Assembly: GCA_014825775.1 (NCBI GenBank)
Contig: MVAQ01000128.1
Span: forward strand, 1 to 59,292
DNA: 59,292 nt
From: Krasilnikovozyma curviuscula
Lineage: Eukaryota > Basidiomycota > Tremellomycetes > Cystofilobasidiales > Mrakiaceae
Direction of reading: 5' to 3'
Shown here: positions 25,693 to 30,857 of the stretch, piece by piece
How positions within the stretch are numbered: the first letter of the stretch is position 1
Layout of the letters: each line of letters begins with the position of its first letter
Program-made: the position numbers and the translations under genes
The notes under the pieces: generated by a model
Databases searched by the model: none
What the model was told of the DNA's origin: nothing
What the model saw: the letters and a program-made list of their open reading frames with translations, nothing else

Positions 25693-26787
25693 CTATGATG
25701 AACTAGACTGATTCTCAGTCCCTACGACCAACCCGAAAGACTCCCCTACACCTTTGCTCTCCAAATAAGCCTTCACCGCACCCATGTCACCCCGGTTTCC
25801 ACGCGCACCGTGCTGCTCTATCATACTAGTGATCTCCACCATCGAGTCAAACTTCCTCTCTGTGATATCGGTTTCTCGATATCGTTCAGAAACCTGGAAA
25901 AAGCCACTCGATCGTGAGACAGAAACCCCAGTCATCTTGAGAGAAACACCGCATACCTTCTTTTGATAACTTGGAATATCAGCCCAGCTTGAAGCCAAAG
26001 ATTCTGTCAGAGAACGGAAGAAAGTGGCTAAGCTGATATGGGCATACCTCTCAGCTTTAATGAACGCCATATAGTCATTGACGTCGGTCGGATGTCCTTC
26101 CAAACACATGATACCTGGTTTCCCAGCCAGAACGAAACCAGTAAGCTTCCACTGAGGTGCAAAGTTCACTAGGTCATCTCTACAGTTCACAACAATCCTC
26201 CATCAGCCAAAGAGCAAGAGGCAGATTGTCGCAACTCCTCACCTTTTCTCTCTCGTGCTTAATGACATGAACCAGAACCACACTCTATCACATCTATCAT
26301 CTCTCTGCCGTAATAAAGGCACTTTCTTCTGTATCTCTACTTTAACAAGCGTTGGTCCAATTTCCTTCAAGAACTCCGCCAACTGAAGCAGGGTGTCTGT
26401 CGAGTAAGAATAATAGTCAGATTGGTCGAAGGGCGGCGGAGGGGGGATGCTGTCCACAAGCGACTGGTACTGAGTTCGTGATATGAAGGAGGGTGGGCGA
26501 ATCGAGAGCGTGATCAGCGGTGGCAGATCTGGTTTTCCAGCTTCGAAAGAAAGCGGCAAGCGACCTCCGATCTCTAGCACTCTACCCTCAGGGGGACCTT
26601 CTAGGGACACCTGAAGGATAAATCTGAGCTCTTGAGGTAATGACTTGGTGATGGTGCCCTCTTCAACCTGACTTTTGAGCGCCTTTAGCTCTTCATCTTG
26701 GGGCGCTTGAAGTTGTAGTTCTGGGAACATGGATTCCAGCACATCTAATGTTTGTAGTTGAAGCTCTATAATTTCCAGAGGTAGCAT
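25693..26787 (-). CDS. RWD-domain protein with C-terminal DUF1115 (RWDD2-like)
   Basis: The N-terminus (MLPLEIIELQLQTLDVLESM, then FPELQL) is an RWD domain, the ubiquitin-conjugase-like protein-interaction fold, with the usual LxxLxxMFP pattern and LPLSFEAGKPDLPPLITLSI. The C-terminal part matches the DUF1115 pattern of RWDD2 proteins: VWFWFMSLSTREKR, then LTGFVLAGKPGIMCLEG and DVNDYMAFIK. Three exons are read: 26243-26787, one ending upstream of the intron near 25900-25960 with its 5' edge at 26179, and the last from KVSERYRETDI to the stop at 25693. The molecular role of RWDD2 proteins is not established. The start lies only 129 bp from the divergent PHB1 start. Confidence 0.82.
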
Positions 26788-28392: not shown

Positions 28393-30857
28393 CTACAAAA
28401 TAATGATTCCAAGATCCTCGATGATACCCCTCCAGCTAGGATCCTTCTCCCCATTGTCTCTCCGCCTCCAAAGATCGTCCAGAATAGCCTCAATGTTGCT
28501 AATGTCAAAGCAGAATTTCGTCTCTGCTCTGAAGTGATCCAAGATTGAGTCCGTTTGAGACTTCCCAAACGCGTCGACGCCGAGGATGGACCCGCAAATC
28601 AGGACTGCCCAAGAGAGACCTATAACTTGCGAGTTCTGACGTGCACAGGACGAGAGATAGTGGAGGGCATCATGACCGGACTTTTGGATAGATGGGTGGG
28701 AGTGGGCGTATTCCAAGATGTCAACGTACAGTATGATCTGTTAATCGAGAAGTATGAGATTTGTTTGGAAAGATACGGAGGTGCAGAGGGACATACCTGC
28801 AAGATATTTGCCTCTATTAGGTTACCATACTGAACTCTCGTCATCTCTCTTCCCTTATCACCTCCAGCCTGGTTCATGATTTCTGTCTTCCAGACCTCAA
28901 CCTCAAGTAAGATATCATTAGCCTTTGTTACCACTTCCTCCATCTGCTTCCCTAGTCCATTTACTTCTTCTCCTTTTTTATCCAGCTCAAATTTATTTCC
29001 TACCAGTAACGCGACACGATTCGACAGTTCTACCATTCCTCGGGAAACTCCAGCAGCGTTCTGAATCGATTCGGATGGGTTCAGCTCGGATTCCTTGGTA
29101 GCGTAGTCAAACCACCATGATCCGAACTCCTCAGTCAAAATCTTTGGTTTCGCACATCGACTGCCTAGACATCGTCCAATGTCAATCCCAACGAGTGCGT
29201 CCAGCATCGTCCGTGTCCGAGCTAGCGCCCCAGCATCGACCTTGACTGAACCAAGCAATTTCGCGCATTCGAGCATCACTTTAGGTCCTCCCTAAGAAAA
29301 AGAGAAGTGAGTTGTTTGGTTATCCAATAATTCCAAAAGAAATACTCACTCTGGCGTTGATCAGTTCACATGCAATATCGAAAGCCTCAGACCAGTACGC
29401 ACCTCCAGATAGGCAACTGGAATTTATGATAGCGATACAACTGGCAATCAATCCATCGCTCTCTTGGTACTCTAAATTCTCTGTGAAGCTGATGCTCGTC
29501 CTGACCAAGGACAAACTTGTCTGGCTCAAATTCTTCGCGACTTTAGATAGACGGTCTTGATTCTCTGCTTCAATCGGGTTGGAGTTCTTGTTGCTAAAGG
29601 AGGAGTTATTCATCGATGATTCAATTCCGCTGGTTCCTAAACTTAGTCGTTTCGGGCGCCTACCGAGTTCTGAGCCTCGAAGATGAGCGAGACTACTCTG
29701 GTGAATGGCTGCTATGCTGAGTAGACTGAGGAGGACGGCGTCAGAAGTAAAACTGGTTCCTCTCGGTGTCATTATTATTTGTGATAGAGTGAGGAACTGG
29801 ACTGGTGATGTGTTGGTCACAGGGATAGCCATGAGCAGATCAGGCGCATTTTTCAGGAAGTGCTGCATCTGCAGCGACAAAAGGCAAAACAGTCAATATC
29901 GGTATTACCGCTGCGAGAAGGATTTACAACTTACAAGGCCACGTTCATTCGGGTTGGGAAAACAAAGTGCGAGGCCATCAGTCGGAGCATTTCCGTTCAG
30001 TGAGGAGTTGACGATCGATGTCGAAATAGCTTGGAACTGTGCAGGCTGAGAATTAGTACTTGTAGTCGATGACAGTTGAGTACTTGATATTATATTTGAT
30101 TCTAACGGTGTATTGCTGTTGTCAAGAGACTGGAACCGAGAGAAATCGTTTGCTTGATTTGACTCGTTGGTGACAGCGTTGATTACTGCCATAGGATACA
30201 CACAGTCTTTCTCCGCAAAGATACAGAGTGAACAAGACGGTTTTTCTGGTTGGTAAGAGTGCGAGTTAGATATGCTACATTGACAAAGCTCCCAAGAGCG
30301 CCTACTCACTTTCATCGCTGCGAGAGGAAATATGTCAACATGGCTTCTAACAGCCATACAAAAAAAGCAACATACCATTTTCTTTTACTCCTCCTACATG
30401 CCAAACATCCCGTCTTAGTTCGTTTGAATTTCGGCTTGTTCTCCTTCGCCGGAGGAGACGTTGACGAACTAGATGCCACAGGCTGCTGCTGAGGCTGCTG
30501 CTGCTGAAATTGCTGCTGCTGCTGTTGCCCATAATACTGCTGCTGATTATCATCTAATGAGAAGTCCATAGCTCCTCCTTCGCCTGATCCAGCGAAACCT
30601 TCGGTAAACCGTGCGAAGTCGCTGCTATCTGCTGTTTGGTTAGCCACTCCTCCTAGAAGAGCCTCAGAAGAGGTCAGGTCGACCATATGAGCCTGTAGAG
30701 CTGGGAAAAGAGGCTCGATGTTTTGCAACTGGAAAAACAGGTTCCTAAACGTTTCTATCGAGGAAAGAGGTAAATAAGCAAGTCTCAGCAAGGACGGCGA
30801 GATAAAATAGGAAAGCAGATTTCGTTGCTTGGAATAGTCACCTTCATCGTTCGACAT
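28393..30857 (-). CDS. Zn2Cys6 transcription factor 2 (Fungal_trans_2-like), polyQ
   Basis: The ATG at 30857 opens MSNDEGDYSKQRN. Unusually, the zinc cluster is not N-terminal: about 150 residues with a polyglutamine stretch come first. The cluster is assembled from three exons: CLACRRSKRK plus TG (ending 30376), an 8-nt microexon at 30310-30317, and an exon from 30245 giving KKPSCSLCIFAEKDC. The joined cysteine spacing is 2-6-6-2-6, the canonical Zn2Cys6 pattern. The remainder resembles the fungal-specific Fungal_trans_2 region (MQHFLKNAPDLLMAI, LLSLLSIAAIHQSSLAHLRG, LGSVKVDAGALARTR, ALICG-like end before GIIIL). This second domain call is weaker than the zinc-cluster call. Targets are unknown. 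Confidence 0.85.
30310..30317 (-). other. Inferred 8-nt microexon in regulator 2
   Basis: On the minus strand CGATGAAA lies between TCGCAG and GTGAGTAGG. With TG from the previous exon it makes Cys-Asp-Glu-Lys, supplying the third cysteine's last base and completing exact Zn2Cys6 spacing. Introns are 58 nt (30318-30375) and 64 nt (30246-30309). Confidence 0.85.
30482..30545 (-). repeat. Interrupted CAG (Gln) repeat in regulator 2
   Basis: Read on the minus strand, this is a run of CAG/CAA codons with a few interruptions, encoding most of two Gln tracts around YYGQ. Such tracts are prone to length change and often form part of activation domains. Confidence 0.85.

What the first reader, a model, noticed from the sequence alone, without database searches (positions are those of the whole stretch)
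30310..30317. 8-nt microexon completes the zinc cluster of regulator 2
Seen: the cluster is split so that an 8-nt exon (CGATGAAA, minus strand) joins two others. Only with it does the cysteine spacing become 2-6-6-2-6. Known: Zn2Cys6 clusters need all six cysteines. Inference: skipping this exon shifts the frame inside the DNA-binding domain, so splicing of these 8 bases could act as an on/off switch for the factor.
Basis: partly seen in the sequence, partly recalled or inferred. Interest (0 to 1): 0.75.

Follow-up and report, generated by a model that had tools for sequence, protein, structure and literature searches.

The report
Eight-base exon completes fungal zinc cluster
A fungal gene regulator's DNA-gripping domain takes its standard form only if the cell splices in a separate eight-base exon; the tiny exon looks real, but nothing yet shows that the cell uses it as a switch, and a similar switch is already published in another fungus.

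Summary
On the minus strand an 8-nt exon, CGATGAAA (30317-30310), lies between a 58-nt and a 64-nt intron. Only with it does the gene encode a canonical Zn2Cys6 cluster (2-6-6-2-6) joined to a Fungal_trans_2 domain. Of 20,000 shuffles of the DNA between the outer splice sites, 42 gave a microexon with the right spacing and none the real D-E. Skipping makes the junction codon TGA. The splice sites next to the exon are strong (acceptor 80th, donor 99th percentile), which fits routine inclusion. An alternative acceptor (30275) keeps the frame with 13 residues between Cys3 and Cys4, so 'all or nothing' is too strong. In the same genome 55 of 66 modelled zinc clusters are cut by introns, and several need tiny exons: 13 nt in a paralogue with the same first intron position, 10 nt at one identical position in four low-scoring models. 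The 8-nt exon is thus the extreme of a habit of this genome. The switch idea has a published precedent (20-nt microexon of Trichoderma virens Xlr2, PMC11121469) but is untested here; no RNA data were available.

The parts
30376..30686 (-). Exon 1 (from the ATG at 30686; an earlier in-frame ATG at 30857 is also possible): glutamine-rich N-terminus, then KFKRTKTG-CLACRRSKRK and the first two bases (TG) of the Cys3 codon
   Evidence: open frame; start codon not settled
30318..30375 (-). Intron 1, 58 nt, GTATGT...CTCGCAG
   Evidence: donor at the 36th and acceptor at the 80th percentile of 74 modelled introns of other zinc clusters of this genome
30310..30317 (-). 8-nt microexon CGATGAAA: third base of the Cys3 codon, Asp, Glu and the first base of the next Lys
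   Evidence: chance test
30246..30309 (-). Intron 2, 64 nt, GTGAGT...CTAAC...ACCAG
   Evidence: donor at the 99th and acceptor at the 32nd percentile; resembles intron 2 of paralogue C59 (5 of 2,000 shuffles as similar)
29935..30245 (-). Exon 3: KKPS-C-SL-C-IFAEKD-C-VYP, then linker; an in-frame Met follows directly after the cluster (VYPMAVIN)
30275..30275 (-). Last base of a possible alternative intron (30375-30275, 101 nt, ...AATGTAG); the exon would resume at 30274 in frame with a Cys3-X13-Cys4 loop
   Evidence: acceptor at the 50th percentile
29350..29868 (-). Exon 4, start of the Fungal_trans_2 domain
28797..29291 (-). Exon 5, Fungal_trans_2 domain
28393..28737 (-). Exon 6 with the stop codon, end of the Fungal_trans_2 domain

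Best explanation
CGATGAAA is a genuine protein-coding microexon, normally included, of a Zn2Cys6/Fungal_trans_2 transcription factor. Two ordinary short introns happen to lie 8 nt apart inside the DNA-binding domain. Each is probably recognised across the intron (intron definition) and the two are removed one after the other, so an 8-nt exon poses no special problem. The exon completes the Cys3 codon and supplies the conserved Asp and a Glu. It exists because zinc clusters of this genome carry introns at many positions, and it is the shortest credible exon of that pattern. Skipping, or retention of either intron, gives an early stop and thus no DNA-binding factor; regulation of that loss is possible but unproven. 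Shown here: the anatomy, the consequences for the reading frame, and the pattern in the genome (from models). Inferred: actual splicing, order of intron removal, routine inclusion, fate of the failed mRNAs.
For: Canonical cluster and both domain matches over the Pfam cut-offs with the exon, and no competing splice model near it in score. The arrangement is rare by chance: 42 of 20,000 shuffles for spacing alone, 0 of 20,000 with D-E. Acceptor into the exon at the 80th and donor out of it at the 99th percentile of 74 modelled introns. In the same genome 55 of 66 modelled clusters (this one included) have at least one intron and 20 of 66 at least two; 11 internal exons of 30 nt or less lie in 10 of the 66 (8, 13, 15, 21, 21, 21, 21, 23, 24, 25, 30 nt). 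Paralogue C59 has a 13-nt microexon after an intron at the same base of Cys3, and its intron 2 resembles this one. Relatives C349 and C322 also have clusters made of small exons, at other positions. Four other genes share a 10-nt microexon at one identical position between Cys5 and Cys6, in models of lower score (20.6-28.0).
Against: No transcript was seen. No orthologue could be compared: the protein search found nothing at E <= 0.001 (7,985 candidates scored) and the genome has no relatives in the collection. The acceptor of intron 2 is only at the 32nd percentile and an alternative acceptor at 30275 scores higher (50th). The skipping intron would be 130 nt, within the range seen here (median 76, maximum 155), so skipping is not excluded by length. 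The exon is not shared with the nearest relative found, C349, which is cut at other places. The splice percentiles and cluster counts come from models chosen with my own simple site scores, not from transcripts.
Confidence: 0.78

Rival explanations
1. Regulated switch: inclusion of the 8-nt exon varies with conditions; the skipped mRNA has TGA at the junction and gives no DNA-binding factor, perhaps with a protein lacking the DNA-binding domain made from the Met just after the cluster.
For: Skipping makes TGA exactly at the junction. The same kind of element is reported as glucose-dependent in Trichoderma virens Xlr2. The 130-nt skipping intron is within the length range. An in-frame Met follows the cluster. 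Exon skipping is reported among the splice variants of Cryptococcus neoformans (PMC3990503, passage).
Against: The splice sites next to the exon are strong; no unusual RNA structure; small exons are common in zinc clusters of this genome, so a special control element is not needed to explain it; in Xlr2 itself no reads joined exon 1 to exon 3, so even there simple skipping was not seen.
Confidence: 0.12
2. The main mRNA uses one 101-nt intron (30375-30275) and the protein has a 13-residue Cys3-Cys4 loop; the 8-nt exon is unused or a minor form.
For: In frame with all six cysteines; acceptor at the 50th percentile, above that of intron 2; loops of 13 residues occur in other modelled clusters of this genome, loci L049 and L096.
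Against: Profile score 30.5 against 61.1; it loses the D after Cys3, which 27 of 41 training clusters have; one-intron routes with a 5-12 residue loop arise in 2,626 of 20,000 shuffles, so such open frames are easily had by chance; the perfect 8-nt fit would then be a coincidence.
Confidence: 0.06
3. The gene is a pseudogene or not expressed, and the arrangement has no function.
For: No expression data.
Against: All six modelled exons are open with GT-AG introns and 662 residues, and the C-terminal domain is nearly complete (residues 210-659 match positions 2-379 of 384).
Confidence: 0.04

Closest known systems
Microexon of Xlr2, Trichoderma virens (PMC11121469; abstract, sections 8, 9 and 16 and passages read)
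   Same: A tiny exon (20 nt) inside the N-terminal Zn2Cys6 cluster; not a multiple of three; without it the first exon's frame stops at the junction
   Different: 20 nt against 8 nt; the Xlr2 exon encodes two cysteines, this one only the last base of one; Xlr2 carries PF04082 and a putative transmembrane segment, this gene Fungal_trans_2 (PF11951); Xlr2 has RNA evidence for glucose-dependent use, this one has none
Zinc cluster with 13-nt exon in the same genome (contig C59, locus L040)
   Same: Intron 1 at the same base of the Cys3 codon; intron 2 similar in sequence; Fungal_trans_2 gene
   Different: Microexon 13 nt, with the second junction 5 nt further on; domain only distantly similar (26-31% over 74-77 residues); intron 1 shows no similarity (663 of 2,000 shuffles as similar)
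Microexons in P450 genes of Phanerochaete chrysosporium (PMC1184071; three passages read, one of them in the abstract)
   Same: Small exons (shortest 6 bp) in a basidiomycete gene family with short introns
   Different: Enzymes, not DNA-binding domains; alternative splicing suggested there as a possible consequence

Membership tests
Zn2Cys6 (Zn_clus, PF00172) transcription factors | Six cysteines CX2CX6CX5-12CX2CX6-8C (spacing range recalled) | tested here: met
   2-6-6-2-6 with the exon; 35.8 bits against cut-off 21
Zn2Cys6 transcription factors | Similarity to solved zinc-cluster domains | tested here: met
   LAC9 1cld E 1.7e-5, PPR1 1pyi E 0.0034, GAL4 1d66 E 0.015 (12 sequences at E <= 0.1)
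Fungal_trans_2 (PF11951) regulators | C-terminal domain over the curated cut-off | tested here: met
   87.4 bits against 21, residues 210-659
Microexons | Length 3-30 nt (range from PMC11121469, section 16) with splice sites on both sides | tested here: met
   8 nt, AG before and GT after
Microexons | Presence in mature mRNA | not testable with these tools
   no RNA data held
Regulated microexon switch of the Xlr2 kind | Inclusion differs between conditions | not testable with these tools
   no RNA data held
Orthologue of Xlr2 | PF04082 middle domain | tested here: not met
   PF11951 found and no PF04082 at E <= 1
Orthologue of Xlr2 | Putative transmembrane segment | not tested
   no prediction was run

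The most novel reading that the evidence does not exclude
In this fungal lineage tiny exons inside zinc clusters (8, 10 and 13 nt, in several transcription factor genes) form a shared splicing checkpoint: conditions that lower splicing fidelity disable the DNA-binding domains of a whole set of regulators at once, since loss of any of these exons breaks the frame.
Probability: 0.07. Interest if true: 0.75.

Novelty: new member of a known kind. Interest (0 to 1): 0.4.

Why it matters
Exons this small are easily missed by gene prediction, and the regulator is then annotated without its DNA-binding domain, as the authors report for Xlr2 in most Trichoderma species examined (PMC11121469). If the pattern modelled here holds, other zinc-cluster regulators of intron-dense fungi may be mis-annotated in the same way (inference). 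If any of these exons is regulated, it is an efficient off-switch for a transcription factor, and the set of paralogues makes that directly testable.

Tried and rejected
Homologues: the protein search gave no match at E <= 0.001 (7,985 candidates scored), so conservation across species could not be tested; the other two protein searches were not used, because I judged from this that fungal proteins are hardly held. RNA structure as a control element: fold z -0.87, 38 of 200 shuffles fold as well; rejected. Introns aiming at cysteine codons: 33 of 76 introns fall at cysteine columns (binomial p 1e-6), but only 8 of 32 distinct positions (p 0.37), so shared positions, above all the one just before Cys3 (12 cases), may explain it; rejected. 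Search of the genome for the microexon cassette by pattern: only this site matches exactly; 15 further sites have one mismatch, and the backward control has 19. A regex scan for unsplit clusters with this exact spacing and R/K after Cys2 found only 2 and was replaced by a splice-aware search. Homology of intron 1 with that of C59: 663 of 2,000 shuffles as similar; no support.

Limits: the survey starts from the 106 PF00172 matches at E <= 10 and the 29 PF11951 matches; the loci fetched cover 104 of the 106 (the matches on C333 and at C387:19024 were not fetched) and all 29. The profile was trained on 41 clusters from these same loci, with the window left out. The 66 clusters counted are those scoring 33 or more (68 rows), less two dropped rows (a second start of L099, and L042, whose model lacks Cys3); two of the 66 (L021 and the second of L084) lack Cys6 in the model and were kept. 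One search listed 89 rows at 20 or more; the 21 below 33 were left out of the counts, and the four genes with the 10-nt exon are among those 21. Cluster C322, found later, is outside the 66. Of the 18 fetched Fungal_trans_2 loci (L031-L048), L035 (second-best tblastn match to this gene), L041 and L046 gave no cluster at 20 or more, L032 gave 25.6, and L042 is the dropped row. The 91 PF04082 matches were not examined for split clusters. Models with 1- or 2-nt exons (L080 and L004, others) are taken as artefacts. The last library search listed 8 of 18 papers.

Full report
What is there. The minus strand around 30420-30230 reads an open frame ending KFKRTKTGCLACRRSKRK plus TG, a GTATGT donor, a 58-nt intron ending CTCGCAG, the eight bases CGATGAAA (30317-30310), a GTGAGT donor, a 64-nt intron with a CTAAC branch-like motif and an ACCAG acceptor, and then AAAAACCGTCTTGT.... 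Joined, these give C-LA-C-RRSKRK-C-DEKKPS-C-SL-C-IFAEKD-C-VY, a textbook zinc cluster. With three further exons (six in all) the model is 662 residues and matches Zn_clus (35.8 bits) and Fungal_trans_2 (87.4 bits), both over the cut-off of 21. The cluster resembles solved ones (LAC9, PPR1, GAL4). The start codon is not settled (30686 or 30857).

Is it more than chance. With the flanks and the outer splice sites held fixed and the DNA between them shuffled with its dinucleotides kept, 256 of 20,000 shuffles gave some microexon restoring a six-cysteine cluster, 42 gave six residues between Cys3 and Cys4, 12 had D, N or S after Cys3 as well, and none had D-E. One-intron routes with a loop of 5-12 arose in 2,626 shuffles, 70 of 20,000 with loop 6 and D/N/S; the real sequence has none of these. 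The test is conditional on this site. A splice-aware profile search trained on 41 other clusters of the genome scores the two-intron model 61.1, the best three-intron model 53.2, the best one-intron model 30.5 and the unspliced model -5.0. On reversed sequence the best score was 12.1 in 746 windows (slightly different settings, real site 62.1).

What losing it does. Skipping joins TG to A and makes TGA at the junction, so the product ends after ...SKRK, 103 residues. Retaining intron 1, intron 2 or both also gives an early stop. One other route stays open: the acceptor ending at 30275 gives Cys3 followed by 13 residues before Cys4. Loops of 13 residues occur in other modelled clusters of the genome (L049, L096), so an isoform of this kind is not excluded, although it loses the Asp that 27 of 41 training clusters have.

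Is it weakly spliced. Against 74 modelled introns of other zinc clusters of the same genome, the acceptor into the microexon lies at the 80th percentile and the donor out of it at the 99th; the donor of intron 1 lies at the 36th and the acceptor of intron 2 at the 32nd, below the alternative acceptor at 30275 (50th). Introns of 58 and 64 nt are on the short side (median 76, middle half 69-95). The fold of the region is unremarkable (z -0.87). This looks like routine splicing. The 130-nt intron that skipping would need is, however, within the range seen (maximum 155). The comparison set was chosen with my own site scores, which favours good-looking sites.

The wider pattern. Of 66 modelled clusters, this one included, 11 have no intron, 35 one, 19 two and one three; 11 internal exons of 30 nt or less occur in 10 of them. 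The paralogue on contig C59 (L040) has a 13-nt exon, CGACGAATCAACA, after an intron at the same base of Cys3, and its intron 2 is like ours (both begin GTGAGTAGGC; 5 of 2,000 shuffles as similar), while intron 1 shows no similarity (663 of 2,000). The best tblastn match among the fetched loci, C349 (L045, 41% over 254 residues), and another relative, C322 (L111, 35% over 82), have clusters of small exons, 30 and 21 nt and 22 and 30 nt, at other positions; the second-best match, C361 (L035), gave no cluster model. Four further genes (loci L049, L066, L093, L096) share a 10-nt exon that runs from the second base of a split Gly codon to TG of Cys6, at one identical position; these models score lower (20.6-28.0), partly because of long loops, but above the best reversed-sequence score of 12.1. 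So the 8-nt exon is the shortest credible one of a class. It most likely arose because two introns came to lie 8 nt apart in a domain that carries many.

How it most likely works. Short fungal introns are thought to be recognised across the intron (recalled; a paper on intron definition in S. pombe is named in the reference list of PMC11121469, and I did not read it). On this view the two introns are removed in turn, and an exon too short to be recognised by itself is no obstacle. This step is inferred.

What is known. PMC11121469 (abstract, sections 8, 9 and 16 and passages read) describes a 20-nt microexon inside the zinc cluster of Trichoderma virens Xlr2, seen without glucose and not with it; without it two separate transcripts appear, and no reads joined exons 1 and 3. 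Its abstract says that functional microexons had not been described before in filamentous fungi. PMC1184071 (three passages) reports exons down to 6 bp in P450 genes of a basidiomycete. In the Cryptococcus papers found (PMC3990503, PMC8022950, PMC10470540; passages only) the word microexon stands only for a setting of read mapping; PMC3990503 also lists exon skipping among its splice variants. Ten library searches were made; in what they listed I saw no report of an 8-nt exon in a zinc cluster or of such a pattern across a genome, but the library lacks most subscription journals and I read no listed paper in full.

Verdict.

Noticed in passing
L049, L066, L093, L096 (contigs C40, C142, C351, C40): Four zinc-cluster genes share a 10-nt microexon at one identical position between Cys5 and Cys6, each ending in TG of a split Cys6 codon; model scores 20.6-28.0.
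   Followed up: partly
L040, contig C59: 13-nt microexon in a zinc cluster, first intron at the same base as in the window's gene.
   Followed up: partly
L045 (C349) and L111 (C322): Zinc clusters of relatives of the window's gene split into small exons; the C322 cluster is not among the PF00172 or PF11951 matches listed.
   Followed up: partly
window 30274-30246: The last 29 bases of intron 2 are an open, in-frame extension if the acceptor at 30275 is used, giving a cluster with a 13-residue Cys3-Cys4 loop.
   Followed up: partly
window 25696-26202 (-): ORF with a sub-threshold match to Prp3_C (23.6 bits, cut-off 27.6), about 2.2 kb from the end of the regulator gene.
   Followed up: no
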